NCBI RefSeq assembly: GCF_040939785.1
Contig: NZ_CP162553.1
Span: 6,405,001-6,469,000 of the forward strand
Direction of reading: 5' to 3'
DNA: 64,000 bases
Source: Bradyrhizobium lupini
GTDB lineage: Bacteria > Pseudomonadota > Alphaproteobacteria > Rhizobiales > Xanthobacteraceae
Part shown: one piece after another, positions 44,944 to 64,000 of the stretch
Layout of the letters: each line of letters opens with the position of its first letter
Numbering within the stretch: position 1 is the stretch's first letter
The notes under the pieces: model-generated
The model's input: the letters and a program-made list of their open reading frames with translations, nothing else
Databases searched by the model: none
What the model was told of the DNA's origin: nothing
Translations under genes and position numbers: made by a program

Positions 44944-47220
44944 ATGGGTATCTTCGATGCAATGAACACCTCGGTGGGTGGCCTGCAGGCGCAGTCCTAC
45001 GCGCTGCAGAACATTTCCGGCAACATCGCGAACTCATCCACCACCGCTTACAAGGGCATCGGCACCAGCTTCGTCGATCTCATTCCGGACGCCTCGGTGC
45101 CGAGCAAGCAGGTCGCCGGCGGCGTGACCGCCAACGCCAAGGCGACCATCACCACCCAGGGCACGATCTCGTCCTCCAGCGTCGCCACCAACATGGCGAT
45201 CACCGGGGACGGCTTCTTCTCGATCCAGAAGGCAACCGGCGTCGTCGACAACGTTCCGGTGTTCAGCGGTGTCACCTATTACACCCGCCGCGGCGACTTC
45301 CAGCTCAATGCCAATGGCAATCTGGTCAACGGCGCCGGCTATTATCTGATGGGGACCACGGTGGACCCGAAGACCGGCAACCCGACCGGCAACGTCGCGA
45401 CCGTCCTGAAATTCCAGAACAACTTCATCCCGGCGCAGGCGACGACCTCGATCCAGTACGCCGCGAACCTGCCGAGCGTGCCGAACACGGCGGCGAGCTC
45501 GACCGCGGCGAGCGGCTCGCTGCTGGCGGCGGGCGGCCTGAACCCGTCCGATTTCGCCGCCAACCCGATGATCGTCGGCACGCCGCCGCCGCCCTACACG
45601 AATGCGACGATCTCCGGCGCAGCCGCGACCGGCAATCTGCGCTCGGCCTATACGCCGACGACCGCGACCGGCTCGGTGGCGCTGCAGGACAGCGCTTCGG
45701 CGGTGGCGACCGGCAGCACGTCTCTCGATTCCGGTGTGACCCCGCATCTCAACACCACCCTTCTCACCAACCTGGCCGGCAAGACATTGACGGTCAACGG
45801 CCAGACCATCAACTTTTCCGCCACCGCTTCTGGCGCCTCGACGACCGGCAGCACGACCACGATCGGCCTGCTCTCGCCTACCGGCGCGCTAATGTCGGAC
45901 GTCCTGAATGCGATTGTCCTGGGCGCCGGTGGCGCCCCGGCCGCCGCGACAATGAACTCCAGCGGCAACATCCAGATCACGACCAACACCACCACTGACG
46001 TGACGATCGGCGGCAGCGCGGCAAGCTTGCTCGGCATCAGTAGCATCACGCGCGGCGGAAACGTGCTGTCCACCCCCGCGATTACCGGTGCGACGCAGCT
46101 CGGCGGCACCGCGCAGCCCGGCGGGGCGGAGGTGCTCTCGACGCCCTTCGTGGTCGGCAACACGATCCAGGTCAACGGCACGGCAGGCGCCAATACGATC
46201 ACCTTCGTGGCCTCAGGTGCCACCAGTGCGACGCCGAACCTGATCAACGTCACGGACGACATCGCGACCTTGCTTCAGAAGATCGACAACCTCAGCGGTG
46301 CAAGCGGTTCTTCGATCAACAACGGCGTAATCACGCTGAACACCGGTATCGCCAATCCCACCTTGACGGTGACCAGCCCCAACAACTCCACCGCCTTCGC
46401 TGCGCTCGGCTTCACGTCGGCCATTTCCAAGAACCGCGGCGGTGGCGGCACGGCCGGCACCGGCGGCGTGATCGGCAACGACATCGCCACGTTCACCAAG
46501 GAATCGATCAGCGGCGGTGCGGTCACCGCCTACAACGCCGCGGGCACGCCGGTGAACCTGCAAATGCGCTGGGCCAAGACCGACAGCGCCTCGCTCGGCA
46601 CCGGCCATTCCGACACCTGGAACCTGTTCTACCAGACCGATCCGAATGCGACCGGCACGACAGTCGGCTGGGTCAATACCGGACAAGCCTTCACCTTCGC
46701 CGCCGACGGCTCGCTGACCTCGCCGAGCAGCTCGGGCATTACCATCAACAATGTCAGCGTCAGCGGCCAGTCGCTCGGCTCGCTCTCCCTCAACATCTCC
46801 CAGGGCGGCCTGACGCAATATGCCAGCACCAGCGGCGCGGTGACGATCAACACCATCACCCAGAACGGCTATGCCGCAGGCCAGCTCCGCTCCGTTGCCG
46901 TCAACAACAACGGCCTCGTGGTCGGCACCTTCTCCAACGGTCAGAACCTCGATCTCGCACAGGTCTCGCTGTCGCACTTCAACGGCACCAACTATTTGAA
47001 GGCGCTCGACGGCGGCGCTTTCTCTGCGACCGAGCAGTCGGGACCTGCGATCGACGGCGCCTCGGGCAGCATCAGCGGCTCGTCGCTGGAAGGCTCGAAC
47101 ACCGACATCGCCGACGAGTTCACCAAGCTGATCGTGACCCAGCAGGCCTATTCGGCCAACACCAAGGTGATCACGACGGCGAATTCGATGGTGCAGGACC
47201 TCCTCAACGTATTGCGCTGA
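44944..47220 (+). CDS. flgE: Flagellar hook protein FlgE, with extra inserted module
   Basis: 758 residues, much longer than the ~400 of enteric FlgE. The N-terminal rod-like domain (MGIFDAMNTSVGGLQAQSYA, ISGNIANSSTTAYKG) and C-terminal domain (SLEGSNTDIADEFTKLIVTQ, ending NSMVQDLLNVLR) are the conserved D0/D1 parts. Between them, residues ~226-494 form a Thr/Ser/Ala/Gly-rich module that also occurs in FlgL here. The start has GGAG 11 bases upstream. FlgE assembles the extracellular hook. Spacing of 33 bases to flgK indicates one operon. Confidence 0.93.
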   Translation: MGIFDAMNTSVGGLQAQSYALQNISGNIANSSTTAYKGIGTSFVDLIPDASVPSKQVAGGVTANAKATITTQGTISSSSVATNMAITGDGFFSIQKATGVVDNVPVFSGVTYYTRRGDFQLNANGNLVNGAGYYLMGTTVDPKTGNPTGNVATVLKFQNNFIPAQATTSIQYAANLPSVPNTAASSTAASGSLLAAGGLNPSDFAANPMIVGTPPPPYTNATISGAAATGNLRSAYTPTTATGSVALQDSASAVATGSTSLDSGVTPHLNTTLLTNLAGKTLTVNGQTINFSATASGASTTGSTTTIGLLSPTGALMSDVLNAIVLGAGGAPAAATMNSSGNIQITTNTTTDVTIGGSAASLLGISSITRGGNVLSTPAITGATQLGGTAQPGGAEVLSTPFVVGNTIQVNGTAGANTITFVASGATSATPNLINVTDDIATLLQKIDNLSGASGSSINNGVITLNTGIANPTLTVTSPNNSTAFAALGFTSAISKNRGGGGTAGTGGVIGNDIATFTKESISGGAVTAYNAAGTPVNLQMRWAKTDSASLGTGHSDTWNLFYQTDPNATGTTVGWVNTGQAFTFAADGSLTSPSSSGITINNVSVSGQSLGSLSLNISQGGLTQYASTSGAVTINTITQNGYAAGQLRSVAVNNNGLVVGTFSNGQNLDLAQVSLSHFNGTNYLKALDGGAFSATEQSGPAIDGASGSISGSSLEGSNTDIADEFTKLIVTQQAYSANTKVITTANSMVQDLLNVLR

Positions 47221-49158: not shown

Positions 49159-51540
49159 ATGTCGATCAGCAGCATCAATTACTCCTCGTCGATTCTCGGA
49201 TCGCAGATCCGCAACATCAATCAGCAGCTCACCGACCTGTCGACGCAGCTCTCGACCGGCAAGCTGTCGCAGAACTATTCGGGGATGGGCACCAACGAGG
49301 GCTTTGCGATCGCCGGGCGCGCGCAGCTTTCCAACATCGCCGCCTATACCGACACGATGACCAACGTCAACGTCAGCATCAACCTCGCCAATACCGCGCT
49401 GCAGTCGCTGACCACGATCCGCAACACGGTGCAGACGGGCTCGGCCAACACCGCGCAGGATCTCAACGTCAACGGTCAGACGGTTGCGCAGAACACCGCA
49501 GCCGCGCAATTCGGCTCGATGGTCGGCGTTCTCAACACGCAGTCCGGCAATCGCTATCTGTTCTCCGGAACCGCCTTCAACACGCCGTCCGTCGCGAATG
49601 CCGGCGACATCATCAACGGCACCACGACGCAGGCGGGCTTCAAGACCGTTATGGTGGAGCGCCAGGCCGCCGACCTCGGTGCTAACGGTATGGGCCGGCT
49701 GGTGCTGGCTACGCCACAGCCGACGCCGAGCTCTGTGATGGTGTCGGAGGACGCGGCCATATCGCCATTCGGCCTGAAGATCGCCGCGGTCTCCTCGACG
49801 CTGACCGGCGCGACGGTCACCGGCCCGAGCGGCTCGCCGGTGTCGTTCTCGGTCGACCTCAACGGCGTCAATCCGAAGAATGGCGACAAGCTCAGCGTCC
49901 AGTTCACGCTGCCCGACGGCTCGACCGAGCAGATCGACCTGACGGCGTCCACCGCGACGCCGACGCCTGTCGGCAGCTTTGCGATCGATGCAAGCGTCCC
50001 GGTCAACCCGAACAACACGGCGACGAACCTCAACACCGCGCTGAACACCGCGATTAAGAAGCTTGCCGGCACCTCGCTGGTGGCGGCGTCCGCTGTCACC
50101 GCCGGGGACAATTTCTTCAATACGGCGGGATCCGCCACTGCCAATGTGGCGGCCACCGGCAATCTGCGCTCCTATACCTCCACGACCGGGACGGGCTCGG
50201 TCGCGTTGCAGGACAGCGCATTGGCGACTGCGTCTACGACCACGTCGCTCGATTCGTCGGCGACACCCCATCTCAACGGGACCATTCTCAACGCGCTCGC
50301 CAACGCTCCGACCGGTACCACCCTGACCATCACCGGCGCGAGCGGCGCCCACACGATCACCTTCGACCCTACCGTCACTACCGTCACCACAACGGCCAGC
50401 GGCAATACCACTATCGGACTGGCTTCGGGCAGCGCCGCGAAGGTGTCTGATATCTTGAATGCGATCGCGACGGCCGCCGGCATCCCCGCCGCCAACGTAA
50501 CTCTGAGCGCCGGCGGCAATATCCAGATCGCGACCGGCACCGGCACGGACGTGGCGGTCACCGGCGGCGCGGCGGCCACGGCGCTCGGTCTCAGCAGCGT
50601 GACGCGCGGCAGCGTGGCGTCGACGCCTCAGATCACCGGTTCAACTGTGCTGAGCGGCATTGCGACTACGGGCGGCCCGGAAGTCCTCTCAGCGGCGTTC
50701 CAGGCGGGGTCGGCGGGTCCGCCTGCCGTTAATCCCGATACGATCACGGTGAACGGTCAGACGCTGACTTTTGTCCCCTCGGGCGCCAGCGGCCCAAACC
50801 AGATCAACATCACCGACAACATCACAACTCTGCTTGGCAAGATCGATCAGATCACCGGCACCACGAAGCCGTCGACGATCCATGGCGGCGTGATCACGAT
50901 CAACACGGACGATCCCGGGAGCCTCAACATCACGAGCTCGAGCAGCACGGCGTTCGCGGCGCTCGGCTTCACGACCTCCCCGGTCACGGCGGCAAAGGCT
51001 CCGCTGCGCGTCGGCTCGTCGCCCCTCGGCTCGGCGACGACGCTGGTGAACGGCTCGGCCACCACCGTGCAATGGTACCTGGGCAATGACGGCCCCGGCT
51101 CGCCGCGCTCCACCGCGATGGCCCGGGTCGACGATTCCGTCACGGTGCAGTATGGCGCGCAGGCGAACGAGGACGCGATCCGCAAGGAGCTGCAGGCGGT
51201 CGCCGTGTTCGGGACGTTCTCGACCTCACCGACCGGGCAGTATTCGGGCGGGCAGGTCGCCGCGCTGAGTCTGCGGGTGACACAGGCCCTGACGAAGCAG
51301 CCAGGCCAGCAGCGCATCGAGGACATCCAGACCGACATCGCAATGGCCCAGAACACCATGAAGGACGCAGGCACGCGCCAGACCCAGGCCAAGGCGCAGC
51401 TCCAGACCATCATCGACCAGGCGGAATCAGCCTCGCCGGACCAGGTCGCGAGCGAGATCCTGTCGCTCCAGAATGCGCTCCAGGCGTCCTACCAGGTGAC
51501 CTCGAACCTCGCGCAGCTCTCGCTCGTCAAGTTCCTGTAA
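49159..51540 (+). CDS. flgL: Flagellar hook-filament junction protein FlgL, with large inserted module
   Basis: 793 residues against ~320 in enteric FlgL. The flagellin-like N-terminus (QLTDLSTQLSTGKLSQNYSG, NVNVSINLANTALQSLTTIR, TQSGNRYLFSGTAFNTPSV) and C-terminal coiled end (QASYQVTSNLAQLSLVKFL) are conserved. The excess lies in the middle, chiefly residues ~330-608, which match the FlgE module in sequence (GNLRSYTSTTGTGSVALQDS, PHLNGTILN, STAFAALGFT). FlgL is the second junction ring protein. It is last in flgE-flgK-flgL. Confidence 0.92.
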   Translation: MSISSINYSSSILGSQIRNINQQLTDLSTQLSTGKLSQNYSGMGTNEGFAIAGRAQLSNIAAYTDTMTNVNVSINLANTALQSLTTIRNTVQTGSANTAQDLNVNGQTVAQNTAAAQFGSMVGVLNTQSGNRYLFSGTAFNTPSVANAGDIINGTTTQAGFKTVMVERQAADLGANGMGRLVLATPQPTPSSVMVSEDAAISPFGLKIAAVSSTLTGATVTGPSGSPVSFSVDLNGVNPKNGDKLSVQFTLPDGSTEQIDLTASTATPTPVGSFAIDASVPVNPNNTATNLNTALNTAIKKLAGTSLVAASAVTAGDNFFNTAGSATANVAATGNLRSYTSTTGTGSVALQDSALATASTTTSLDSSATPHLNGTILNALANAPTGTTLTITGASGAHTITFDPTVTTVTTTASGNTTIGLASGSAAKVSDILNAIATAAGIPAANVTLSAGGNIQIATGTGTDVAVTGGAAATALGLSSVTRGSVASTPQITGSTVLSGIATTGGPEVLSAAFQAGSAGPPAVNPDTITVNGQTLTFVPSGASGPNQINITDNITTLLGKIDQITGTTKPSTIHGGVITINTDDPGSLNITSSSSTAFAALGFTTSPVTAAKAPLRVGSSPLGSATTLVNGSATTVQWYLGNDGPGSPRSTAMARVDDSVTVQYGAQANEDAIRKELQAVAVFGTFSTSPTGQYSGGQVAALSLRVTQALTKQPGQQRIEDIQTDIAMAQNTMKDAGTRQTQAKAQLQTIIDQAESASPDQVASEILSLQNALQASYQVTSNLAQLSLVKFL

Positions 51541-51547
51541 GCGGGCG

Positions 51548-51562
51548 TTAAGGCGCCGTTAA
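51548..51562 (+). promoter_or_regulatory. Perfect CtrA-type site upstream of the four-gene operon
   Basis: TTAA (51548-51551), seven bases, TTAA (51559-51562), followed by CC, a full match to the CtrA consensus TTAA-N7-TTAACC. It lies in the 71-base gap between flgL and the next gene, 50 bases before its start. Confidence 0.65.
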
Positions 51563-51611
51563 CCATGCCTCTTTACCTCTTGGTGAGGATTGCAGCGGGG
51601 CGGAGCTGACG

Positions 51612-52394
51612 ATGTCGGAGAAGATGAAGCTGGTGGTGGCCACGCCATGTTTCGGCGGGCAGGTGACGAGCATCTATGCGAGCTCGATCTTCGCGCTCCA
51701 GCGCGCCGTGCACGGCATGGCCAATCTCGAGCTCAAGGTTCTGTTGCGCGACGGCGATGCGCTGATCACGCGCGCGCGGGCCAATCTGGCCGCGATGTTC
51801 CTGGACGATCCCGAAGCGACGCACTTCCTCTTCATCGATGCCGACATCGGCTTCAAGCCGGAGCAGGTGTTCCGGCTGATCGAGTGCGGCGCGGACGTCG
51901 TCGCCGGCTGTTATCCAATCAAGCGGATCAACTGGGACAAGGCCGCGCGGGCGATCCAGTCCGGCCGCGCCGACGTGCCGGCCGCATCGCTCGACTACGT
52001 GCTCGAGATCGAGGATCCCGACCGCATCGTGGTGGTGAACGGCTTCACCCGCGTGCGCTACGCCGGCACCGGCTTCCTGATGATCCGGCGCTCCGTGCTG
52101 GAGGCGATGTGCCGCCATCCGGACTACGCGGCCCTGCAATTCTTCCACGAGCATTCGCACGATACGCTGGCGGCGAGCCACAACCGGTTTGCCTTGTTCG
52201 AATGCATGATCGATGCGGCGACCGGCACCTATCTGTCCGAGGACTTCGCCTTCTGCAAACGCTGGACTGATATCGGCGGTGAGATCTGGGCCGACATCGA
52301 GAGCTCGCTCGATCACGTCGGAGCGTCGGTGTTCCACGGCGACATCACCTCGCAATTCGCACCGGCGCCCGCGGCGGCGGCCGATGCGGCGTGA
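51612..52394 (+). CDS. Glycosyltransferase-like protein (GT-A fold)
   Basis: 260 residues. It opens with a nucleotide-sugar-type strand (KLVVATPCFGGQVTSIYASS), then LITRARANLAAMFLDD and a DxD-like metal site in FLFIDADIGFKPEQVFRLIE, followed by GADVVAGCYPIKRINW and RYAGTGFLMIRRSVLEAM with an acceptor-side SEDFAFCKRW. This is the plan of GT2/GT-A-like enzymes. GGAG precedes the start. It heads a coupled operon between flgL and flbT, which suggests a role in flagellin or envelope glycan work; donor and acceptor unknown. Confidence 0.75.
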   Translation: MSEKMKLVVATPCFGGQVTSIYASSIFALQRAVHGMANLELKVLLRDGDALITRARANLAAMFLDDPEATHFLFIDADIGFKPEQVFRLIECGADVVAGCYPIKRINWDKAARAIQSGRADVPAASLDYVLEIEDPDRIVVVNGFTRVRYAGTGFLMIRRSVLEAMCRHPDYAALQFFHEHSHDTLAASHNRFALFECMIDAATGTYLSEDFAFCKRWTDIGGEIWADIESSLDHVGASVFHGDITSQFAPAPAAAADAA

Positions 52395-52404
52395 GCCTTT
52401 CGGG

Positions 52405-54033
52405 ATGAGCGCCGGCGCATCCCGTCTGTCAGCCAGCGAGCGCGCGTCCGTCGGCGGCTCGCGCTATCGCCTGCGCGATCTCTTCACACCACTGGATACG
52501 CTGCTCGCCTCCGGCGGAGATCCGCGGCTGGCGCTCGATCCGAACGACCGTGTCAACGCCTACGGCTGCGCGGCTTCGCCGGAGCCGGAGCTCTGGAATT
52601 TCGCCTCCGCGACCGCATCGACGATCTCGCAGATGGCCTACGACCGCGCCGCGCTGGCGCGCGAAGAGCTGATGCACAAGTGCCTGTTCGACGAGGTCGA
52701 AATCGCCTTCGACGCCCGCTGCGAGGACATGCGCGAGGAGCTGCGCGGCCACCTTGCGCTCTCGTCGCGCATCGGCGTCGTGTTCTCGCCGTCCGGCACG
52801 GACTCCCAGCTTCACGCCCTGTTCGTGGCCCGCGCGGTGCTCGGCGCGGCGCCGGTGACGATCGTGGTCGGCGCCGACCAGACCGGAAGCGGGACGCCGC
52901 ATACCGCACGCGGCCACCATTTCAGCACGATGACGGCAGGCGGCATGGCCGTGCGCAAGGACGGCGCGGTGACGGGGCTGGCCGGCGACAGCATCGCGGT
53001 GCCGCTGATCGACATGGCGGCCGGCGTTGCGATGCGCACCGATGCCGATGCCGCGGTGCTGCATGCGGTCGAGACCAGCCTCGCGCAAGGCCGGCGCGTT
53101 TTGTTGCAGATCATGGATTCGTCAAAACTCGGTTGGCGTGCCCCAAGCGAGGCGTGTCTCGACGAGATCGCGCGGCGCTGGCCGCGCAAGGTTCAAATTG
53201 TCGTCGATGCCTGTCAGGCGCGGCTCGGTCGCCGGCGGCTGCGCGCCTATCTCGACCGTGGTTACATGGTGCTGATCACCGGCTCGAAATTTTTCGGCGG
53301 ACCGGCCTTCAGCGGTGCGCTGCTGCTGCCGAAAGGCCTGTCGCGGTCGATCGACCGGATGGGCGGGATCGCGCCTGGCATCTTCGATTATGCCGGCCGC
53401 TGCGACTGGCCGGTGGCGTGGACGATGCTGCGCTCGCGGTTCGAGCGCCGGCCGAATTTCGGTCAATGGCTGCGCTGGGAGGCCGCGCTGGCCGAGATCG
53501 GCAGCTACTACGCCGTGCCCGGGGCTTTCCGCGCCAGGATGCTGGCCGAGCTTGCAGCCGGCATCGACAGCATGATCGCGTTGTCGCCGTCGCTTCGTGC
53601 CGTTCCCACCGCGATCGAGAAGTCCGGCGCGGACGACGAGGAGTTCGTGCAAGCCACGATCTTTCCGTTCACGCTGCTGCGCGGCGGCAAGCCGGTCTCG
53701 CTCGCCGAGACCAGCGCCGTGCATCGGGCGCTGGCGTGCGACATGGCCGAGGAGATCAGCGGCAGCGCGGCGGACCGGCAAGTGACCGCCCAGCGCTGTC
53801 TCGTCGGCCAGCCGGTCCGACTGGAGCGGCAGGACGGTGCGCCGCAGGCCGTGTTGCGCCTCTGCGTCGGCGCACGATTGGTGACCGAGGCATGGTCGCC
53901 GAATACAATGCAGGCGCAACGCAATGTGCAGCACGTTCTCGATCGCATCGCCCATGTGCTGGTGAAGATCGAGCTGCTGCTTGACCGTGGCGCGGTTGCG
54001 GCCGTGCCGGCAAAGTCCGCGTTCGAGGTGTGA
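52405..54033 (+). CDS. PLP-dependent fold-type I enzyme, unknown substrate
   Basis: About 542 residues; ATG 52384, overlapping the previous stop, is an alternative start. It is PLP fold type I: SPSGTDSQLHALFVARAVLG (cofactor phosphate loop), IVVDACQARLGRRRL with the cofactor-binding Asp, and the Schiff-base Lys in MVLITGSKFFGGPAFSGALL. It lacks features that would place it in a named aminotransferase or decarboxylase family. The unusually long C-terminal part may bind the substrate. It follows the glycosyltransferase-like gene by 10 bases and precedes the ATP-grasp gene by one. Confidence 0.7.
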   Translation: MSAGASRLSASERASVGGSRYRLRDLFTPLDTLLASGGDPRLALDPNDRVNAYGCAASPEPELWNFASATASTISQMAYDRAALAREELMHKCLFDEVEIAFDARCEDMREELRGHLALSSRIGVVFSPSGTDSQLHALFVARAVLGAAPVTIVVGADQTGSGTPHTARGHHFSTMTAGGMAVRKDGAVTGLAGDSIAVPLIDMAAGVAMRTDADAAVLHAVETSLAQGRRVLLQIMDSSKLGWRAPSEACLDEIARRWPRKVQIVVDACQARLGRRRLRAYLDRGYMVLITGSKFFGGPAFSGALLLPKGLSRSIDRMGGIAPGIFDYAGRCDWPVAWTMLRSRFERRPNFGQWLRWEAALAEIGSYYAVPGAFRARMLAELAAGIDSMIALSPSLRAVPTAIEKSGADDEEFVQATIFPFTLLRGGKPVSLAETSAVHRALACDMAEEISGSAADRQVTAQRCLVGQPVRLERQDGAPQAVLRLCVGARLVTEAWSPNTMQAQRNVQHVLDRIAHVLVKIELLLDRGAVAAVPAKSAFEV

Positions 54034-54034
54034 G

Positions 54035-55288
54035 ATGCAACATCCAGTTTCCGCGCCGGGCGGCGTGACCGCGCCGACCCATGCCGACCGCATCGGCTTT
54101 GCGCAGTTGACGCGCCGCGCCTTCGAGGGCGGCGACCTGCATCCGTTGCGCGAGCGGCTGCTGGCGCGGATCGAGGAGGGAACGGCGGAGGCCGGCGAAG
54201 GCCTCGATCTCTCGCTGATTGCCCAGCTTCTCGGCGAGAAGGAGGCCGGGCTGGTGATCCAGACCGAGGTGCTCTCCTTCCACCAATTGTTTCGTACGCC
54301 TTGCGCGGCTCCAAAACCCCGCCTGCGCGTGCTCGCGCTCGCCGCCGATATCGACATGGGCGGCAACACGCCGATCGACTTCCTGCTTGAAGATTCCGAC
54401 ATCGAGCTGTTGACGCTCTACGTTGTCAAGGGCATCGGCCTGCCGGAGACTCTGCCCGAGCACGACGTCGCCATCGTGATCGCATCCGATTCCGAGGAGT
54501 GCCGGGAGGCACTCGCGCTGATCGAGAAGGCCGCGCCGCACTGGCCGAAGCCGCTGCTCAATCGTCCGGATCTCATTGGCAATCTCGATCGCGACAAGCT
54601 GTATCGTCTGCTGACGGGCGTGCCCGGCCTCGACATTCCCGTGACCGCCCCCACGACGCGTGCGCAATTGTCGGAGCTTTCGCGAGGCAGGATCGTTTGC
54701 GAGGAGATCACGGGCGAACTGCGCTTTCCAATGATCGTGCGGCCGCGCGGTACGCATGCCGGCGTCGGTCTCGCGAAACTCGACGATGCTGGAGCGCTCG
54801 CGGCCTATCTCGCCGAGCGACAAGAGCAGGACTTCTTCGTCGCACGTTTCGTCGACTATGCGAGTCCGGACGGGCTCTACCGCAAATATCGTCTCGCGAT
54901 GGTCGACGGCAAAGCCTATGCGTGCCACATGGCAATCGCCGATCGCTGGGACATCTGGTATCTCAACGCCTTCATGGCGTTCAGCGAGGAGAAGCGGGCC
55001 GAGGAAGCCGTCTTCATGCTCGACTTCGACCATGCTTTCGCCGCGCGCCACAAAATCGCGCTCGACGAGATGAGCAGGCGCGTCGGCCTCGATTACTTCA
55101 TCGTCGATTGCGCCGAGAACCAGAACCGCGAGCTGCTGGTCTTCGAAGCCGACAATACCGCCGTTGTGCACAACATGGATCCGCCGGCCGTATTTCCGTA
55201 CAAGCCGCCGCAGATGCGCAAGATCTTTGTGGCATTCACGGCGATGCTGTCGCGGCATGCAAGAGCGAGTGAGGAGAGTGCAGCATGA
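54035..55288 (+). CDS. ATP-grasp-like ligase, unknown substrate
   Basis: 417 residues from ATG 54035. An N-terminal Rossmann-like half (LRVLALAADIDMGGNTPIDF, DVAIVIASDSEECREALALI) is followed by an ATP-grasp half: FPMIVRPRGTHAGVGLAKL, DFFVARFVDYASPDGLYRKY, RLAMVDGKAYACHM and the metal end ELLVFEADNTAVVHNMD. ATP-grasp enzymes join a carboxylate to an amine or similar through an acyl phosphate. It overlaps the next gene by four bases (ATGA), so translation is coupled. Confidence 0.72.
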   Translation: MQHPVSAPGGVTAPTHADRIGFAQLTRRAFEGGDLHPLRERLLARIEEGTAEAGEGLDLSLIAQLLGEKEAGLVIQTEVLSFHQLFRTPCAAPKPRLRVLALAADIDMGGNTPIDFLLEDSDIELLTLYVVKGIGLPETLPEHDVAIVIASDSEECREALALIEKAAPHWPKPLLNRPDLIGNLDRDKLYRLLTGVPGLDIPVTAPTTRAQLSELSRGRIVCEEITGELRFPMIVRPRGTHAGVGLAKLDDAGALAAYLAERQEQDFFVARFVDYASPDGLYRKYRLAMVDGKAYACHMAIADRWDIWYLNAFMAFSEEKRAEEAVFMLDFDHAFAARHKIALDEMSRRVGLDYFIVDCAENQNRELLVFEADNTAVVHNMDPPAVFPYKPPQMRKIFVAFTAMLSRHARASEESAA

Positions 55289-56784
55289 ACGAGATCATCC
55301 GCAACACGCAAAGCTCCGTCACGCACACTTCGCTCGATCCGCAGGACTGGAGCGAGTTTCGCGCGCTCGCTCATCGCATGCTTGACGAGACGATCGACGG
55401 CATCGCCAACGTTCGCGCGCGTCCGGTGTGGCAGCCGATCCCCGACGGCGTTCGTGCGGCGTTCAACGCCGATGTGCCGCGCGAGGCGAACGACCTCGCC
55501 GACGTCTATCGCGACTTCTCCGAACATGTCGCGCCCTATGCGACCGGCAACGTCCATCCCGGTTTCATGGGCTGGGTGCATGGCGGCGGTACCGCGGTCG
55601 GCATGGTCGCGGAAATGCTCGCGGCGGGCCTCAACGCCAATCTCGGCGGCCGCGACCACATGCCGATCGAGGTGGAGCGCCAGGTCGTCGACTGGATGCG
55701 ACGCCTGTTCGCCTTCCCGGAAAGCGCGAGCGGCATCTTCGTCACCGGCACGTCGATGGCCAATCTGATGGCGGTGCTGGTGGCGCGCACCAGCGCGCTC
55801 GGCACGCTGGCGCGGCAGTACGGCATCGGCAATGACGGTGCGCTGCTCACGGCTTACACATCGCGGGCCGCCCATGGCTGCGTCTCGCGGGCGATGGACA
55901 TCGCTGGGCTCGGCAGCGATGCGCTGCGCAAGATCGGCGTCGATACCGATCATCGCATGGACGTTGCCGCGCTACGTGCGCAGATCGCGATCGATCGTGA
56001 GGTCGGTTTCAGGCCGTTCCTGGTCGTCGCATCCGCCGGTACCGTCGATATCGGCGCGGTCGACGATCTCAAGGCGATCGCGGAGCTGTGTCGCGAGGAA
56101 GGAATCTGGTTTCACGTCGACGGCGCCTTCGGTGCGCTCGCGATTCTGTCGCCCGAGCTTGCGCCGCTGCTCGGCGGCATCGAGCTTGCGGACTCCATTG
56201 CGCTCGACTTCCACAAATGGGGACAGGTGCCTTATGACGCCGGCTTCCTGCTGGTGCGCGACGGCGAGCAGCATCGACAGGCCTTTACGCAGCCCGCGGC
56301 CTATCTGCGTCGCGAGGCGAGGGGGCTTGCGGCCGGCGCAATCTGGCCCTGCGATCTCGGCCCCGATCTGTCGCGCGGCTTCCGTGCGTTGAAGACGTGG
56401 TTCACGTTGAAGACGTTCGGCACAAATCGGCTCGGTGCGGTGATCGCACGAAGCTGTGCGCTGGCGAAATATCTGGAGACGCGCGTTCTCGCCGAGCCGC
56501 GGCTGGAATTGCTGGCGCCGGTCAATCTCAACATCGTCTGCTTTCGTTACCGCGCTGCCGACGAGGTCAACCGCGAGATCGTTGCCGACATCCAGGAGTC
56601 CGGTATCGCGGCGCCCTCAAGCACGACGCTCGACGGCAGGTTTGCGATCCGCGCCGCTATCGTCAATCACCGTACCGACGAGAGCGACATCGACGCGCTG
56701 GTCGCGGCCGTGCTGGAATTCGGCGGGCGTCGCAGCCGAGACGCTGTGATCGAGGTCGATGCGCCGCCGCTCGCGGCACACTAG
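55285..56784 (+). CDS. Pyridoxal-dependent amino acid decarboxylase
   Basis: 499 residues of the group II decarboxylase family (glutamate, aromatic amino acid and tyrosine decarboxylases): NVHPGFMGWVHGGGT, GIFVTGTSMANLMAVLVART, IWFHVDGAFGALA with the cofactor Asp, and the Schiff-base Lys in IALDFHKWGQVPYDAGFL. It converts an amino acid to its amine; the substrate cannot be read from sequence. It is the last gene of the operon, followed by a 16-base hairpin. Confidence 0.85.
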   Translation: MNEIIRNTQSSVTHTSLDPQDWSEFRALAHRMLDETIDGIANVRARPVWQPIPDGVRAAFNADVPREANDLADVYRDFSEHVAPYATGNVHPGFMGWVHGGGTAVGMVAEMLAAGLNANLGGRDHMPIEVERQVVDWMRRLFAFPESASGIFVTGTSMANLMAVLVARTSALGTLARQYGIGNDGALLTAYTSRAAHGCVSRAMDIAGLGSDALRKIGVDTDHRMDVAALRAQIAIDREVGFRPFLVVASAGTVDIGAVDDLKAIAELCREEGIWFHVDGAFGALAILSPELAPLLGGIELADSIALDFHKWGQVPYDAGFLLVRDGEQHRQAFTQPAAYLRREARGLAAGAIWPCDLGPDLSRGFRALKTWFTLKTFGTNRLGAVIARSCALAKYLETRVLAEPRLELLAPVNLNIVCFRYRAADEVNREIVADIQESGIAAPSSTTLDGRFAIRAAIVNHRTDESDIDALVAAVLEFGGRRSRDAVIEVDAPPLAAH

Positions 56785-56802: not shown

Positions 56803-56839
56803 CGACAACGGCCCCGGAGACGATCCGGGGCCGTTGTCG
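56803..56839. terminator. Long hairpin between convergent operon end and flbT
   Basis: CGACAACGGCCCCGGA (56803-56818) is perfectly complementary to 56824-56839 around a five-base loop. No clear T-run follows, but its place 19 bases after one stop and 33 before the other suits two-way termination. Confidence 0.7.
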
Positions 56840-56871: not shown

Positions 56872-57312
56872 TCAGGCGGCGGTGCTGACGTCGCCCTGGC
56901 TCGCTTCGGCCTTGGGATGGGTGGCCTCGAACTGGCCGCGCAACTTCTCTTCATAGGCGATCAACTTGCGGGCATCCTTCAGGGCGCGATAGAGGTCGCC
57001 GTTGAGGATGTTGTTGTTGATGCCTTCGATGATCGGCCAGGAGCTCGGCACCGCGGTGACGATGTCTCGCACCAGGTTGAAATAGGTGCCGTGCTGGGTC
57101 TGAGGATCCGGCGAGATGTACATGAGCTGGACCGCCAGATAGACGAGCTTGGCGGGCGAGTCGGCGGTCTCCGGTGTGAGGATGTCGCGCTCGCGCAGGA
57201 TCGGCACGTTGTCGCCGTCGATCAGAAGGCGGGCGCGCTGGTCGGTGTTGGTTATCACGCAGTTACCGACGATGATGCGTTCGTGCGGTCTGAGCTCGAC
57301 CTTGAGGGCCAT
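56872..57312 (-). CDS. flbT: Flagellin mRNA regulator FlbT
   Basis: 146 residues. It matches FlbT throughout: MALKVELRPHERIIVGNCVI, LLIDGDNVPILRERDIL, LVYLAVQLMYISPDPQTQHG, IEGINNNILNGDLYRALKDA and LIAYEEKLRGQFEA. FlbT binds the 5' leader of flagellin mRNA and limits its translation until hook completion in Caulobacter. Here it sits head to head with flagellin 1. GGAGAAC precedes its start. Confidence 0.93.
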   Translation of the reverse strand: MALKVELRPHERIIVGNCVITNTDQRARLLIDGDNVPILRERDILTPETADSPAKLVYLAVQLMYISPDPQTQHGTYFNLVRDIVTAVPSSWPIIEGINNNILNGDLYRALKDARKLIAYEEKLRGQFEATHPKAEASQGDVSTAA

Positions 57313-57631: not shown

Positions 57632-59893
57632 ATGTCCGGTATCGTTCTCTCCTCCTCGGTTCGTCAGAACCTCCTCTCCCTCCAGTCCACCGCTGATCTT
57701 CTCGCCACCACGCAGAACCGTCTGTCGACCGGCAAGAGCGTCAATTCGGCCCTGGACAATCCCACCAACTTCTTCACGGCACAGTCGCTCGACAACCGCG
57801 CCAGCGACATCAACAACCTGCTCGACGGCATCGCCAACGGCGTGCAGGTGCTGCAGGCTGCCAACACCGGCATCACCTCGCTGCAGAAGCTGATCGACAG
57901 CGCAAAGTCGATCGCCAACCAGGCGCTGCAGACCACTGTCGGCTATTCCTCGAAGTCCAACGTCTCCACCACGATCGCCGGCGCGACCGCGTCCGATCTG
58001 CGTGGCACGACGACCTATGCCAGCTCGACCGCGAGCAGCAACGTGCTGTACTCCGGCGCTGCCGGCGGTACGACCGCTGCGGCTTCGACCACGAAGCTCG
58101 GCGGTGTCTCGGGTGTCCTCACCGGCGCCGTGACGCAGGACAACGCCGGTACCCCCGCCAACATCTCCGGCACCACGCTGATCTACGGTGCGAGCGGCGC
58201 GCTGACCACGCAGGCCACCACCAAGTTCGCTGACGGCGACACCTTCAGCGTCAACGGCAAGACCGTCACTGTGAAGGCGGCGACCGCCCCGACGGCAGCC
58301 AGCCTGATCGGCGGCACCACCGGCGTGCTCGGCAACGTCGTCACCGATACCTCGGGCAACTCGACGGTCTACCTCAACGCCACCACGACGGTCGGCGACT
58401 TCGTCAACGCCTTCGATCTCGCCAGCGGCACGCAGACGGCGACGATCACCTCCACCGCGGGTACGGCGGCCTTCGCTCAGACTGCGGGCCAGACCGCATC
58501 GAGCATCACGGGCGGTCAGATCTCGCTGCAGAGCACGACCGGCGCCGATCTGGTGCTGACCGGCAAGGCTGACGCCCTGAAGGCGCTGGGCCTCACCGCA
58601 TCGGTCGGTTCGGGCACCGCGACGGTGCAGGCGAACCGCACCACCGGCACGGGTACGCTGTCCTCGCTGCTCCAGACCAACTCGACGCTGAACGTCAACG
58701 GCCATGTCATCAGCTTCAAGGATGGCAATGCGCCCGCGGCGGCCAACGTTCCGGCCGGCTCCGGCGTTGCCGGCAACCTCGTCACCGATGGCAGCGGCAA
58801 CTCGACCGTCTATCTCGGCGGCGCCACCGCGGCCGACCTCCTGAAGGCGATCGACCTTGCCACCGGCGTGCAGTCTGCGTCCAACGCCAGCGGCACCGCG
58901 ACGGTGACGACGACGACCGGCCAGATCGCCTCGTCGATCAACTCGAGCGGCCAGCTCAAGATCTCGACCGGCGTTAACGCCGACCTCGCGATCACCGGCA
59001 CCGGCAACGCGCTGTCGGCGTTCGGCCTGGCCGGCAACACCGGCACGGCCTCGGCCTTCACCGCGGCACGTAGCGCCGGCACGGGTGGCATCAACGGCAA
59101 GAGCTTGACCTTCAGCTCCTTCAACGGCGGCACGGCGGTCAACGTCACCTTCGGCGATGGCACCAACGGCACGGTCAAGACGCTCGATCAGCTCAACACG
59201 CAGCTCCAGGCCAACAACCTGTCTGCCACGATCGACGCCAACGGCCTGCTCACCATCTCCTCGACGAACGACTACGCGTCTTCGACGCTTGGTTCGGCGG
59301 CCGCGGGTGGTGCGATCGGCGGTACGCTGACCTCGTCGCTGACCTTCTCGACCGCTTCTAGCCCGGTCGCTGACAATGTCGCACAGACGACCCGTGCGAA
59401 CCTGGTCTCGCAGTACAACAACATTCTGAACCAGATCGACACGACCTCGCAGGACTCCTCGTTCAACGGTGTGAACCTGTTGAACGGTGACCAGCTCAAG
59501 CTGGTATTCGACGAGACCGGCAAGTCGAACCTGAACATCACGGGTGTGACCTACAACTCCAAGGGTCTCGGCCTCGCCTCGTTGACCAGCGGTGTCGACT
59601 TCATCGACAACTCTGCGACCAACAAGGTGCTGTCGAACCTCAACGCCGCCTCGAGCACGCTGCGTTCGGAAGCGTCGAGCCTCGGTTCGAACCTCTCGGT
59701 GGTGCAGGTGCGTCAGGACTTCAACAAGAGCCTGATCAACGTGCTGCAGACCGGCTCGTCCAACCTGACCCTGGCCGACACCAACACCGAAGCGGCCAAC
59801 AGCCAGGCGCTGTCGACCCGCCAGTCCATCGCGGTCTCGGCGCTGTCGCTGGCCAACCAGTCGCAGCAGAGCGTGCTGCAGCTGCTCCGCTAA
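57632..59893 (+). CDS. fliC: Flagellin (thick polar filament type), copy 1
   Basis: 753 residues. The conserved ends are QNLLSLQSTADLLATTQNRL with LDNPTNFFTAQSLDNRASDI at the N-terminus and STRQSIAVSALSLANQSQQS ending VLQLLR at the C-terminus. The central ~450 residues are Thr/Ser/Gly/Ala-rich with two related blocks (DGDTFSVNGKTVTVK and STLNVNGHVISFK, each followed by GNSTVYL), an internal duplication. The size matches the large flagellins of the Bradyrhizobium subpolar thick flagellum. It is exported to the filament. ACCAGAAAGGTAACA supplies the ribosome site, and a terminator follows. Confidence 0.93.
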   Translation: MSGIVLSSSVRQNLLSLQSTADLLATTQNRLSTGKSVNSALDNPTNFFTAQSLDNRASDINNLLDGIANGVQVLQAANTGITSLQKLIDSAKSIANQALQTTVGYSSKSNVSTTIAGATASDLRGTTTYASSTASSNVLYSGAAGGTTAAASTTKLGGVSGVLTGAVTQDNAGTPANISGTTLIYGASGALTTQATTKFADGDTFSVNGKTVTVKAATAPTAASLIGGTTGVLGNVVTDTSGNSTVYLNATTTVGDFVNAFDLASGTQTATITSTAGTAAFAQTAGQTASSITGGQISLQSTTGADLVLTGKADALKALGLTASVGSGTATVQANRTTGTGTLSSLLQTNSTLNVNGHVISFKDGNAPAAANVPAGSGVAGNLVTDGSGNSTVYLGGATAADLLKAIDLATGVQSASNASGTATVTTTTGQIASSINSSGQLKISTGVNADLAITGTGNALSAFGLAGNTGTASAFTAARSAGTGGINGKSLTFSSFNGGTAVNVTFGDGTNGTVKTLDQLNTQLQANNLSATIDANGLLTISSTNDYASSTLGSAAAGGAIGGTLTSSLTFSTASSPVADNVAQTTRANLVSQYNNILNQIDTTSQDSSFNGVNLLNGDQLKLVFDETGKSNLNITGVTYNSKGLGLASLTSGVDFIDNSATNKVLSNLNAASSTLRSEASSLGSNLSVVQVRQDFNKSLINVLQTGSSNLTLADTNTEAANSQALSTRQSIAVSALSLANQSQQSVLQLLR
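57723..59221 (+). repeat. ~1.5-kb tract shared by flagellins 1 and 2
   Basis: By reading the two copies in parallel, 57723-59221 and 60340-61838 appear identical at a constant offset of 2617 bases. Differences are dense on both sides, for example in the first 90 bases of the genes and after 59222. This pattern indicates gene conversion. Confidence 0.8.
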
Positions 59894-59922
59894 CAAGCGG
59901 ACGACATCGCAACCAAGACATG

Positions 59923-59952
59923 GCGGCGGGGCTTCGGCCCCGCCGCTTTTTT
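59923..59952 (+). terminator. Intrinsic terminator after flagellin 1
   Basis: GCGGCGGGGC, loop TTCG, GCCCCGCCGC, then six T. An almost identical structure follows flagellin 2. Confidence 0.93.
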
Positions 59953-60120
59953 GCAACGGCATCAGAGTGCCGCTGGACGAAGTGCGGACGATGCATTCGG
60001 ATGCAGCCGATTGCTTACCCTGATTATGGTTGACAAGTCGCAAACGCCGGATCGTTGCGCGAAAAAGCGTCATGCTATCATGACGATATGGACGAGCCTG
60101 AGATGGCTCCGATCGCTCAT

Positions 60121-60248
60121 ATGGTGAATCCGCGCAAGGACTGGCGCGACACGCTTCATGCTTTGTTAGCCGTCTGTGTTCACCGTCCCGGACATCGATT
60201 AATCCTAATCGAAGTTTGTTGCGTCGCGTACCAGAAGGGTAACACTCA
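60121..60248 (+). promoter_or_regulatory. Promoter and leader of flagellin 2
   Basis: Block A ATGGTGAATCCGCGC (60121-60135), block B CTTTGTTAGCC (60161-60171) and leader block ACCAGAAGGGTAACA (from 60230) all recur before flagellin 3 with the same spacing. The remainder of the 355-base gap after the terminator shows no gene. Confidence 0.55.
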
Positions 60249-62510
60249 ATGTCCGGTATTGTTCTCTCCTCGTCGGTTCGTCAGAACCTTCTCTCTCTCC
60301 AGTCCACCGCTGATCTTCTCGCCACCACCCAAAGCCGCTTGTCGACCGGCAAGAGCGTCAATTCGGCCCTGGACAATCCCACCAACTTCTTCACGGCACA
60401 GTCGCTCGACAACCGCGCCAGCGACATCAACAACCTGCTCGACGGCATCGCCAACGGCGTGCAGGTGCTGCAGGCTGCCAACACCGGCATCACCTCGCTG
60501 CAGAAGCTGATCGACAGCGCAAAGTCGATCGCCAACCAGGCGCTGCAGACCACTGTCGGCTATTCCTCGAAGTCCAACGTCTCCACCACGATCGCCGGCG
60601 CGACCGCGTCCGATCTGCGTGGCACGACGACCTATGCCAGCTCGACCGCGAGCAGCAACGTGCTGTACTCCGGCGCTGCCGGCGGTACGACCGCTGCGGC
60701 TTCGACCACGAAGCTCGGCGGTGTCTCGGGTGTCCTCACCGGCGCCGTGACGCAGGACAACGCCGGTACCCCCGCCAACATCTCCGGCACCACGCTGATC
60801 TACGGTGCGAGCGGCGCGCTGACCACGCAGGCCACCACCAAGTTCGCTGACGGCGACACCTTCAGCGTCAACGGCAAGACCGTCACTGTGAAGGCGGCGA
60901 CCGCCCCGACGGCAGCCAGCCTGATCGGCGGCACCACCGGCGTGCTCGGCAACGTCGTCACCGATACCTCGGGCAACTCGACGGTCTACCTCAACGCCAC
61001 CACGACGGTCGGCGACTTCGTCAACGCCTTCGATCTCGCCAGCGGCACGCAGACGGCGACGATCACCTCCACCGCGGGTACGGCGGCCTTCGCTCAGACT
61101 GCGGGCCAGACCGCATCGAGCATCACGGGCGGTCAGATCTCGCTGCAGAGCACGACCGGCGCCGATCTGGTGCTGACCGGCAAGGCTGACGCCCTGAAGG
61201 CGCTGGGCCTCACCGCATCGGTCGGTTCGGGCACCGCGACGGTGCAGGCGAACCGCACCACCGGCACGGGTACGCTGTCCTCGCTGCTCCAGACCAACTC
61301 GACGCTGAACGTCAACGGCCATGTCATCAGCTTCAAGGATGGCAATGCGCCCGCGGCGGCCAACGTTCCGGCCGGCTCCGGCGTTGCCGGCAACCTCGTC
61401 ACCGATGGCAGCGGCAACTCGACCGTCTATCTCGGCGGCGCCACCGCGGCCGACCTCCTGAAGGCGATCGACCTTGCCACCGGCGTGCAGTCTGCGTCCA
61501 ACGCCAGCGGCACCGCGACGGTGACGACGACGACCGGCCAGATCGCCTCGTCGATCAACTCGAGCGGCCAGCTCAAGATCTCGACCGGCGTTAACGCCGA
61601 CCTCGCGATCACCGGCACCGGCAACGCGCTGTCGGCGTTCGGCCTGGCCGGCAACACCGGCACGGCCTCGGCCTTCACCGCGGCACGTAGCGCCGGCACG
61701 GGTGGCATCAACGGCAAGAGCTTGACCTTCAGCTCCTTCAACGGCGGCACGGCGGTCAACGTCACCTTCGGCGATGGCACCAACGGCACGGTCAAGACGC
61801 TCGATCAGCTCAACACGCAGCTCCAGGCCAACAACCTGACTGCCACGATCGATGCCAACGGCCTGCTGACCATCAATGCAACCAACGACTACGCGTCTTC
61901 GACGCTCGGCTCGGCTTCGGCCGGTGGCGCAATCGGCGGCACGCTGACGAGCGCTCTGACTTTCTCGACGGCTTCGACCCCCGTCCAGGATACGGTTGCC
62001 CAGACCTCGCGTGCGAACCTGGTCGGCCAGTACAACAACATCCTTGCGCAGATCGACTCGACCTCGCAGGACTCCTCGTTCAACGGTGTGAACCTGCTGA
62101 ACGGCGATCAGCTCAAGCTGGTGTTCGACGAGACCGCCAAGTCGAGCTTGAGCATTACGGGTGTGACCTACAACTCCAAGGGTCTGGGTCTCGCCGCGTT
62201 GACACAAGGGACGGACTTCATCGACAACGCTGCGACCAACAAGGTGCTGACAAACTTGAACACTGCGTCGAGCACGCTGCGTTCGGAGGCATCGGCACTT
62301 GGTTCGAACCTGACCATCGTGCAGGTTCGTCAGGACTTCAACAAGAACCTGATCAACGTGCTGCAGACCGGCTCGTCCAACCTGACCCTGGCCGACACCA
62401 ACACTGAAGCGGCCAACAGCCAGGCGCTGTCGACCCGCCAGTCCATCGCGGTCTCCGCGCTGTCGCTGGCCAACCAGTCGCAGCAGAGCGTGCTGCAGCT
62501 GCTCCGCTAA
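60249..62510 (+). CDS. fliC: Flagellin (thick polar filament type), copy 2
   Basis: 753 residues, same length as copy 1 and nearly identical except near both ends. The N-terminus differs only slightly (TTQSRLST against TTQNRLST). The C-terminal ~220 residues carry scattered changes (LTATIDANGLLTINATN, TPVQDTVAQTSRANLVGQYN, LTQGTDFIDNAATNKVLTNL). It has its own leader motif and terminator, so it is a separate transcription unit. Distinct copies may assemble at different positions along the filament, as in Caulobacter; that is inference. Confidence 0.93.
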   Translation: MSGIVLSSSVRQNLLSLQSTADLLATTQSRLSTGKSVNSALDNPTNFFTAQSLDNRASDINNLLDGIANGVQVLQAANTGITSLQKLIDSAKSIANQALQTTVGYSSKSNVSTTIAGATASDLRGTTTYASSTASSNVLYSGAAGGTTAAASTTKLGGVSGVLTGAVTQDNAGTPANISGTTLIYGASGALTTQATTKFADGDTFSVNGKTVTVKAATAPTAASLIGGTTGVLGNVVTDTSGNSTVYLNATTTVGDFVNAFDLASGTQTATITSTAGTAAFAQTAGQTASSITGGQISLQSTTGADLVLTGKADALKALGLTASVGSGTATVQANRTTGTGTLSSLLQTNSTLNVNGHVISFKDGNAPAAANVPAGSGVAGNLVTDGSGNSTVYLGGATAADLLKAIDLATGVQSASNASGTATVTTTTGQIASSINSSGQLKISTGVNADLAITGTGNALSAFGLAGNTGTASAFTAARSAGTGGINGKSLTFSSFNGGTAVNVTFGDGTNGTVKTLDQLNTQLQANNLTATIDANGLLTINATNDYASSTLGSASAGGAIGGTLTSALTFSTASTPVQDTVAQTSRANLVGQYNNILAQIDSTSQDSSFNGVNLLNGDQLKLVFDETAKSSLSITGVTYNSKGLGLAALTQGTDFIDNAATNKVLTNLNTASSTLRSEASALGSNLTIVQVRQDFNKNLINVLQTGSSNLTLADTNTEAANSQALSTRQSIAVSALSLANQSQQSVLQLLR

Positions 62511-62837: not shown

Positions 62838-64000
62838 TATGTCCGGTATCGTTCTATCCACGTCGGTTCGTCAGAACCTGCTGTCTCTCCAGTCCACCGC
62901 CGACCTCCTCGCCACCACGCAGAACCGTCTGTCGACCGGCAGGAGCGTCAATTCGGCCCTGGACAATCCCACCAACTTCTTCACCGCGCAGTCACTCGAC
63001 AATCGCGCCAGCGACATCAACAATCTGCTCGACGGCATCGCCAATGGCGTGCAGGTACTGCAGGCCGCCAACACCGGGCTGACCTCGCTGCAGAAGCTGA
63101 TCGACAGCGCAAAGTCGATCGCCAACCAGGCGCTGCAGACCACTGTCGGCTATTCCTCGAAGTCCAGCGTCTCCACCACGATCGCCGGCGCGACTGCTGC
63201 TGACCTTCGCGGCACGACTACCTATGCCAGCTCGACCGCGAGCAGCAACGTGCTGTACTCCGGCGCTGCCGGCGGTGCGACCGCTGCGGCTTCGACCACG
63301 AAGCTCGGCGGTGTCTCGGGTGTCCTCACCGGCGCCGTGACGCAGGACAACGCCGGTACCCCCGCCAACATCTCCGGCACCACGCTGATCTACGGTGCGA
63401 GTGGCGCGCTGACCACGCAGGCCACCACCAAGTTCGCTGACGGCGACACCTTCAGCGTCAACGGTAAGACCGTCACCGTGAAGTCCGCGGCGACCCCAGG
63501 TGCAGCCACTCTGATCGGTGGCACCAGCGGTGTCTTCGGCAACGTCGTCACCGACGGCTCCGGCAACTCGACCGTCTACCTCAATGCCAACACCACGGTT
63601 GGCGACTTCGTCAACGCCTTCGATCTCGCCAGCGGCACGCAAACGGCGACGATCACCTCCACCGCGGGCACGGCGGCCTTCGCTCAGACTGCGGGCCAGA
63701 CCGCATCGAGCATCACGGGCGGTCAGATCTCGCTGCAGAGCACGACCGGCGCCGATCTGGTGCTGACCGGCAAGGCTGACGCCCTGAAGGCGCTGGGCCT
63801 CACCGCATCGGCGGGTTCGGGCACCGCGACGGTGCAGGCGAACCGCACCACCGGCACCGGTACGCTGTCCTCGCTGCTCCAGACCAGCTCGACGCTGAAC
63901 GTCGACGGTCATGTCATCAGCTTCAAGGATGGCAATGCGCCGGTTCCGGCCAACGTTCCGGCCGGCTCCGGCGTTGCCGGCAACCTCGTCACCGATGGAA
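62838..64000 (+). CDS. fliC: Flagellin, copy 3 (3' end outside window)
   Basis: Open from ATG 62838 to the window edge, about 387 codons. It starts MSGIVLSTSVRQNLLSLQST and continues like the other copies. Some stretches match copy 1 base for base over hundreds of bases (for example around 63610-63810). Others differ, such as GATAADLRGTT, KSAATPGAATLIGGTSGVFG and the SSTLNVDGHVISF segment. It is therefore a mosaic paralogue. TTACCAGAA-type leader and ribosome site as in the other copies. Confidence 0.9.

What the first reader, a model, noticed from the sequence alone, without database searches (positions are those of the whole stretch)
51548..56784. Undescribed four-gene operon inside the flagellar locus
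A GT-A-like protein, a fold-type I PLP enzyme of no named family, an ATP-grasp ligase and a PLP amino acid decarboxylase are packed with gaps of 10 and 1 bases and a 4-base overlap, between flgL and flbT. The set could make an amine, ligate it to a carboxylate and transfer a sugar-like group. That fits a flagellin or hook modification, or a small signal made in step with flagellum assembly. Seen: gene order, motifs, spacing. Known: the enzyme families. Inferred: the joint function.
Basis: partly seen in the sequence, partly recalled or inferred. Interest (0 to 1): 0.75.

Follow-up and report, generated by a model that had tools for sequence, protein, structure and literature searches.

The report
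Flagellum-linked amine-and-ligase enzyme cassette
Four neighbouring genes in a Bradyrhizobium flagellum locus include a three-enzyme cassette that recurs across several bacterial phyla, sometimes as fused proteins and sometimes inside flagellar gene clusters, and that may attach an unknown small molecule to the flagellum.

Summary
The operon is real (A 51612-52394, B 52405-54033, C 54035-55288, D 55285-56784) and lies between flgL and flbT; the finding's start, 51548, is in the gap before A. It is two units. A is a probable GT-A-type transferase whose relatives stand in tandem beside flagellins in two other Hyphomicrobiales families without B, C or D. B-C-D is a cassette I found described nowhere: a class-V-fold PLP enzyme, a RimK/LysX-fold ATP-grasp ligase with TPR-like N-terminal helices, and a PF00282 decarboxylase with intact catalytic residues. 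D-C, D-B and B-C fusions exist. Outside Bradyrhizobium, flagellar genes lie within about 10 kb at 11 of 46 loci with D and C (0 of 25 with D but no C), at different points of flagellar clusters; 45 of those 46 genomes encode flagellin, against 11 of 25. Against: 35 of 46 loci are unlinked; a separate draw gave 1 of 8; one cassette genome shows neither flagellin nor FlhA; elsewhere flagellin is common without the cassette. Best reading: D, with B, supplies an amine that C joins by an amide bond to a flagellar protein or its glycan, and A adds a sugar. Substrate and target are inferred.

The parts
51612..52394 (+). Gene A, probable GT-A-type transferase, 260 aa, DxD motif
   Evidence: ORF; profile A6 matches PDB 2c0n (A197) at E 7.9e-6; some relatives match GT21, Anp1, GT8 or GT2 weakly, A itself none; D76 and D78 invariant in 12 of 12 rows
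52405..54033 (+). Gene B, fold-type-I (class V-like) PLP enzyme, 542 aa, no Pfam family
54035..55288 (+). Gene C, ATP-grasp ligase of RimK/LysX fold with TPR-like N-terminal helices, 417 aa
55285..56784 (+). Gene D, PLP-dependent group II decarboxylase, 499 aa
   Evidence: PF00282 E 1.2e-67; H197, D279 and K311 invariant in the 77 relatives aligned
56803..56839 (+). Perfect 16-bp hairpin 18 bases after D, possible transcription end; no T tract follows
   Evidence: z -4.15; 0 of 200 shuffles fold as well; not called by the terminator scan
49159..51540 (+). flgL (context), upstream of A
56872..57312 (-). flbT (context), convergent with the operon
57632..59893 (+). Flagellin gene (context)
60249..62510 (+). 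Second flagellin gene (context)

Best explanation
A flagellar post-translational modification set made of two units. B-C-D is an amine-and-ligase cassette: D decarboxylates an amino acid to an amine, B prepares or tailors the amino acid (transamination or elimination chemistry), and C, held to its target by its TPR-like N-terminus, spends ATP to join the product by an amide bond to a carboxylate of a flagellar protein, most likely flagellin in the cytoplasm before export. A transfers a sugar to the flagellin, at the same or separate sites. Shown: gene order, enzyme classes, kept catalytic residues, fusions, linkage to flagellar loci at a minority of loci, co-occurrence with flagellin. Inferred: the substrate, the amide target, the order of steps and the place of A.
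For: Linkage: flagellar genes within about 10 kb at 10 of 46 non-Bradyrhizobium D+C loci by phmmer, plus L216 by Pfam FlaG, so 11 of 46, against 0 of 25 loci with D but no C (Fisher p 0.009 for 10 against 0). The positions differ, which argues against one inherited accident: between flgN and flgA onward (L203, L228, and with two more genes L247); beside flgA or flgB onward (L244, L245); beside fliE (L250, L232); downstream of fliS-fliT-fliK (L226); beside flgK and a flagellin/FlgL-type gene in a Riflebacteria MAG (L206); near fliC, flbT, flgL and flgK (L224); after fliC-flaG-fliD-fliS (L311). Co-occurrence: 45 of 46 D+C genomes encode flagellin against 11 of 25 with D but no C (p 2e-7). Unit: D-C fused in L173, L223, L249, L252; D-B in L218; B-C in L211. 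Of 10 neighbour families seen at four or more of the 46 loci, 7 are flagellar, mostly from Gallionella-type loci. Mechanism: the top nine VIA-align matches of C are RimK, LysX and ArgX, which ligate amino acids to protein carboxylates (established knowledge). TPR docking of flagellin is shown for FlmG (PMC7591256, passages). A-type genes stand beside flagellins elsewhere without B-C-D.
Against: 35 of 46 non-Bradyrhizobium D+C loci have no detected flagellar neighbour; in a separate phylum draw flagellar queries hit at 1 of 8 D+C loci. Six of those 14 C loci, and L141, L142 and L144, have no D nearby, so C is not always part of the cassette. Genome G626 (L204) has the cassette but neither flagellin nor FlhA, though it is a MAG. 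In two other samples C-positive genomes were 17 of 17 flagellated, but so were 210 of 280 and 47 of 53 of the rest, so those tests are weak or uninformative. Some of the flagellar query proteins came from D+C loci themselves, which favours detection there. A distant B homologue follows an NRPS gene (L043). The Z lead of RimK over ITPK1 and D-Ala ligases is only about 2.5 to 4, and Foldseek's own order puts D-Ala ligases next to LysX/ArgX. No flagellin mass data were available.
Confidence: 0.42

Rival explanations
1. B-C-D builds an amide-linked cap for a flagellin glycan, and A is a glycosyltransferase of that glycan. C acts on a small amino acid or amino sugar, not on the protein. Logic as in the C. 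difficile type B flagellin glycan, whose cap is taurine-Ala-Gly.
For: In C. [quoted passage not shown] a mutant in the ATP-grasp gene carries the unextended trisaccharide (PMC5207246, passages; cap structure PMC5207245, passages). A is GT-like and in line with B-C-D here. A DUF4910/DUF2172 gene lies by the L206 cassette.
Against: A was found at 8 of the 9 Bradyrhizobium loci and at none of the other 71; A occurs without B-C-D. The TPR-like part of C and the RimK/LysX match fit a protein target better.
Confidence: 0.27
2. B-C-D makes a free small molecule (siderophore, osmolyte or signal) useful to motile cells; placement in flagellar loci gives co-regulation only.
For: Most non-Bradyrhizobium loci are unlinked to flagellar genes; a B homologue follows an NRPS gene and faces a MATE-like gene (L043, reading by eye); D resembles decarboxylases that make free amines.
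Against: The non-flagellar neighbour families at four or more of the 46 loci were few: a kinase-like family at 5, an ABC-ATPase-like family at 4 (both named by eye) and an antisense ORF family at 4. 45 of 46 genomes flagellated and the different insertion points are not expected.
Confidence: 0.22
3. The cassette modifies a surface or exported protein other than flagellin (hook, HAPs or another appendage).
For: At several loci the nearest genes are rod, hook or export genes, not flagellin; one cassette genome shows no flagellin.
Against: L311, L224, L170 and Bradyrhizobium loci have flagellin in the same stretch.
Confidence: 0.09

Closest known systems
C. difficile type B flagellin modification locus (CDR20291_0241-0247; PMC5207246, PMC5207245, passages read)
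   Same: ATP-grasp ligase and glycosyltransferases in the flagellin locus, co-transcribed; cap with an amine (taurine) lost in the ATP-grasp mutant
   Different: ATP-grasp is Pfam 13535 there; partners are FemAB-, cyclodeaminase- and FdtB-like proteins; no decarboxylase is named (0 occurrences in PMC5207246)
Caulobacter FlmG flagellin glycosyltransferase (PMC7591256, passages read)
   Same: Cytoplasmic flagellin modification; TPR part docks flagellin
   Different: Catalytic part is a GT, not an ATP-grasp ligase; sugar is pseudaminic acid
RimK and LysX/ArgX
   Same: Fold of the ATP-grasp part of C; these ligate amino acids to a protein carboxylate (established knowledge)
   Different: C adds TPR-like helices and is tied to a PLP decarboxylase and a second PLP enzyme; identity 14-20%
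Bacterial tryptophan decarboxylase RUMGNA_01526 (4obu)
   Same: Best PDB sequence match of D; Trp at the loop position that is Tyr in DOPA decarboxylase
   Different: D belongs to a conserved group that often travels with B and C
Methanofuran enzymes MfnA plus MfnD (recalled, not tested)
   Same: PLP decarboxylase followed by an ATP-grasp ligase on its amine
   Different: Free cofactor synthesis in archaea; no B-like enzyme

Membership tests
PF00282 group II PLP decarboxylases (D) | Family profile above curated cut-off | tested here: met
   228.8 bits against cut-off 27
PF00282 group II PLP decarboxylases (D) | Schiff-base Lys, Asp to the pyridine N, PLP-stacking His | tested here: met
   invariant in the 77 relatives aligned
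PF00282 group II PLP decarboxylases (D) | Decarboxylase activity | not testable with these tools
   needs an assay
Class V aminotransferase/NifS-like fold-type-I PLP enzymes (B) | Fold | tested here: met
Class V aminotransferase/NifS-like fold-type-I PLP enzymes (B) | Pfam match (PF00266) | tested here: not met
   no Pfam family at E up to 1
RimK/LysX ATP-grasp ligases (C) | Fold of the ATP-grasp part | tested here: met
RimK/LysX ATP-grasp ligases (C) | Curated RimK or LysX family profile | tested here: not met
   no such Pfam or NCBIfam match
RimK/LysX ATP-grasp ligases (C) | Ligation to a protein carboxylate | not testable with these tools
   needs an assay
GT-A glycosyltransferases (A) | Profile relation to a known GT | tested here: inconclusive
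   A197 of PDB 2c0n at E 7.9e-6 over profile positions 35-103 of 249; that A197 is a GT is recalled; weak GT Pfam hits of relatives, none for A itself
GT-A glycosyltransferases (A) | DxD motif | tested here: met
   D76, D78 invariant in 12 of 12
C. difficile type B flagellin cap locus | ATP-grasp ligase and GT beside flagellin | tested here: met
   (GT by profile only)
C. difficile type B flagellin cap locus | FemAB-, cyclodeaminase- and FdtB-like partners in the operon | tested here: not met
   none among the four proteins
Flagellin modification systems | Changed flagellin mass on gene loss | not testable with these tools
   no mass data

The most novel reading that the evidence does not exclude
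A new class of protein modification: a TPR-guided RimK-like ligase amidates flagellin side-chain carboxylates with an amine made next door by a dedicated decarboxylase, giving the filament a new charge or chemistry in several phyla.
Probability: 0.22. Interest if true: 0.88.

Novelty: new variant of a known kind. Interest (0 to 1): 0.72.

Why it matters
Most flagellin modifications I know of are sugars (recalled). A three-enzyme cassette with all pairwise fusions, two of its proteins outside Pfam's cut-offs, found in 45 of 46 cases in flagellated genomes in the main sample, points to an overlooked filament chemistry in common soil and water bacteria. It is directly testable in the soybean symbiont B. 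diazoefficiens: close relatives of B carry the source name Bll5850, by tag number near the subpolar flagellin genes bll5843-5846 (PMC4823718, passage).

Tried and rejected
One conserved four-gene system: rejected, since A and B-C-D were not found together outside Bradyrhizobium. Chance operon: rejected. D as the flagellum-linked factor by itself: not favoured, since D without C gave 0 of 25 linked loci and 11 of 25 flagellated genomes. The phylum-level flagellin test was uninformative: baseline 47 of 53. Methylocystis-type D loci set aside as a different group. A was not structure-predicted, as both jobs went to B and C. Literature (listings unless passages are named): bll5850, 0 papers; bll5847, bll5848 and bll5851, 0 occurrences in the 20 of 253 papers listed; of bll5846, bll5848, bll5849, bll5851, bll5852 and blr5847, three papers, each only for bll5846; flagellin with ATP-grasp or decarboxylase terms, 0 papers or no fitting title among those listed; brought the C. 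difficile papers. The flagellar survey of Bradyrhizobium (PMC6406911, passages) has 0 occurrences of decarboxylase, glycosyl or bll58. Subscription papers were not searchable; ATP-grasp surveys by Iyer and Aravind (recalled) may mention related TPR-ATP-grasp proteins.
Full report
Observation. The window lies at 6405001-6469000 of a 7.8-Mb one-contig genome; the named relatives nearest to B are Bradyrhizobium. The start is 51612, not 51548. Upstream are flgE, flgK and flgL on the same strand; downstream is flbT (convergent), then flagellins of 753 aa. A perfect 16-bp hairpin lies 18 bases after D, without a T tract; the terminator scan did not call it.

Same genus. Of 35 same-genus genomes besides the window's own, 20 have a B match; G009 has only a 45-residue fragment and G015 only a distant homologue, leaving 18 with an orthologue. 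Their loci (L024-L041) place B, C and D between flgL and flbT in 18 of 18, and A in 17; in L027 two fragments of A remain. The other two fetched B homologues, L042 and L043, showed no flagellar hit with the queries used and are 32-34% identical. Loci reached through C vary: L147 has flgL-C-D-flbT with flagellins of 387-388 aa and neither A nor B; L148 has A-C-D; L154 has all four. The nine Bradyrhizobium loci have B, C and D, flagellar genes in 9 of 9, and A in 8 of 9; L259 keeps one fragment of A. C-D is thus the steadiest pair. I did not test whether the genomes without B have the subpolar flagellum.

Gene A. No Pfam match itself, but a 12-member alignment has an invariant DxD, its profile matches A197 (PDB 2c0n) at E 7.9e-6 over part of its length, and some members match GT families weakly. 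Of 297 Hyphomicrobiales genomes, 32 have a match, the window's own included. Of 19 such loci fetched, six (L074, L075, L076, L084, L086, L087; two families) have three or four A-type genes in a stretch with flagellins and flbT, and no B, C or D by tblastn; the other 13 showed no flagellar hit with the queries used.

The B-C-D cassette. Nine are Bradyrhizobium. Of the other 71, 46 have C within 4 kb of D (29 of these also B) and 25 do not (4 of these have B). The D+C loci come from Alpha-, Beta- and Gammaproteobacteria and from MAGs labelled Acidobacteriaceae, Bryobacterales, Terriglobia, Geobacteraceae, Riflebacteria and Pirellulaceae. The commonest order outside Alphaproteobacteria is D-C-B. 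C also occurs without D: in a phylum draw, 8 of 14 fetched C loci have D in the stretch and 6 do not; L141, L142 and L144 do not either.

Flagellar linkage. With 28 flagellar query proteins, several of them taken from D+C loci themselves, 10 of the 46 D+C loci and 0 of the 25 without C have a flagellar gene in the fetched stretch, up to 10 kb each side. Pfam adds FlaG beside the cassette of L216, making 11; the 25 were checked with the 28 queries only. Positions differ: flgN, cassette, then flgA onward in L203, L228 and (with two more genes) L247; flgA or flgB onward beside L244 and L245; fliE in L250 and L232; fliS-fliT-fliK and an FlhB-like fragment before L226; flgK and a flagellin/FlgL-type gene in L206 (Riflebacteria); fliC, flbT, flgL and flgK near L224. 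Outside that set: L143 and L170 and L311, where fliC, flaG, fliD, an unassigned gene, fliS, D, C and B follow on one strand. In the phylum draw only L311, 1 of 8 D+C loci, had a hit; a C-only locus (L318) had an FlhB-like hit. Several contigs are short, so counts are lower bounds; Gallionella-type loci are related and not independent.

Genome co-occurrence. Flagellin_N was found in 45 of 46 D+C genomes and 11 of 25 with D but no C (Fisher p 2.3e-7; genomes are not phylogenetically independent, and many of the 25 are Methylocystis relatives). The miss, G626, also lacks FlhA. Among 297 Hyphomicrobiales, 17 of 17 genomes with C at E up to 1e-60 (9 of them the window's genus) have flagellin against 210 of 280 others (p 0.009). 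In a phylum and class sample, 17 of 17 C-positive (6 of them without D beside C) against 47 of 53 others, which adds little.

Fusions. D-C in L173 (884 aa); D with a TPR-type C part in L223, L249 and L252 (1006-1034 aa); D-B in L218 (1002 aa); B-C in L211 (953 aa); none has an internal stop. These are single ORFs in the fetched DNA, not proteins seen; the single cases (L173, L211, L218) could be sequence errors, the three Acidobacteriota cases less so.

Verdict. A real, recurring cassette with good but incomplete evidence for a flagellar role; the chemistry is open.

Noticed in passing
window 44944-47220 and 49159-51540: FlgE and FlgL share a similar inserted domain: window FlgL residues about 331-607 align to FlgE of relatives at 50-62% identity, and many relatives' FlgL lack that stretch. 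A domain may move between hook and filament-junction proteins.
   Followed up: no
window 57632-62510: Two 753-aa flagellins with almost the same sequence, and a third starting at 62839: tandem duplication.
   Followed up: no
L041:4902-6497: A TPR plus Glyco_transf_9 protein lies inside the operon of a divergent same-genus locus, an architecture like FlmG; the same stretch also holds what reads as an ABC substrate-binding protein gene.
   Followed up: partly
L043:8901-10448: A distant B homologue directly follows an NRPS gene on a 214-kb contig, facing a MATE-like exporter gene (reading by eye).
   Followed up: no
L149, L150, L151, L152: Paralogues of C with N-terminal TPR similarity stand without D or flagellar hits; in L152 they are in tandem beside porin-like genes (by eye).
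   Followed up: no
L204 (genome G626): Cassette present in a MAG with no detected flagellin or FlhA.
   Followed up: partly
L027:9822-9992 and L259:6942-7034: Decayed remnants of A between flgL and B: A is being lost in some Bradyrhizobium while B-C-D stays.
   Followed up: partly
L206:15353-16657: DUF4910/DUF2172 gene beside the Riflebacteria cassette; Cj1295 of C. jejuni, a flagellin-glycan gene, has an aminopeptidase-like domain (PMC3068675, passages); kinship of the two not tested.
   Followed up: no
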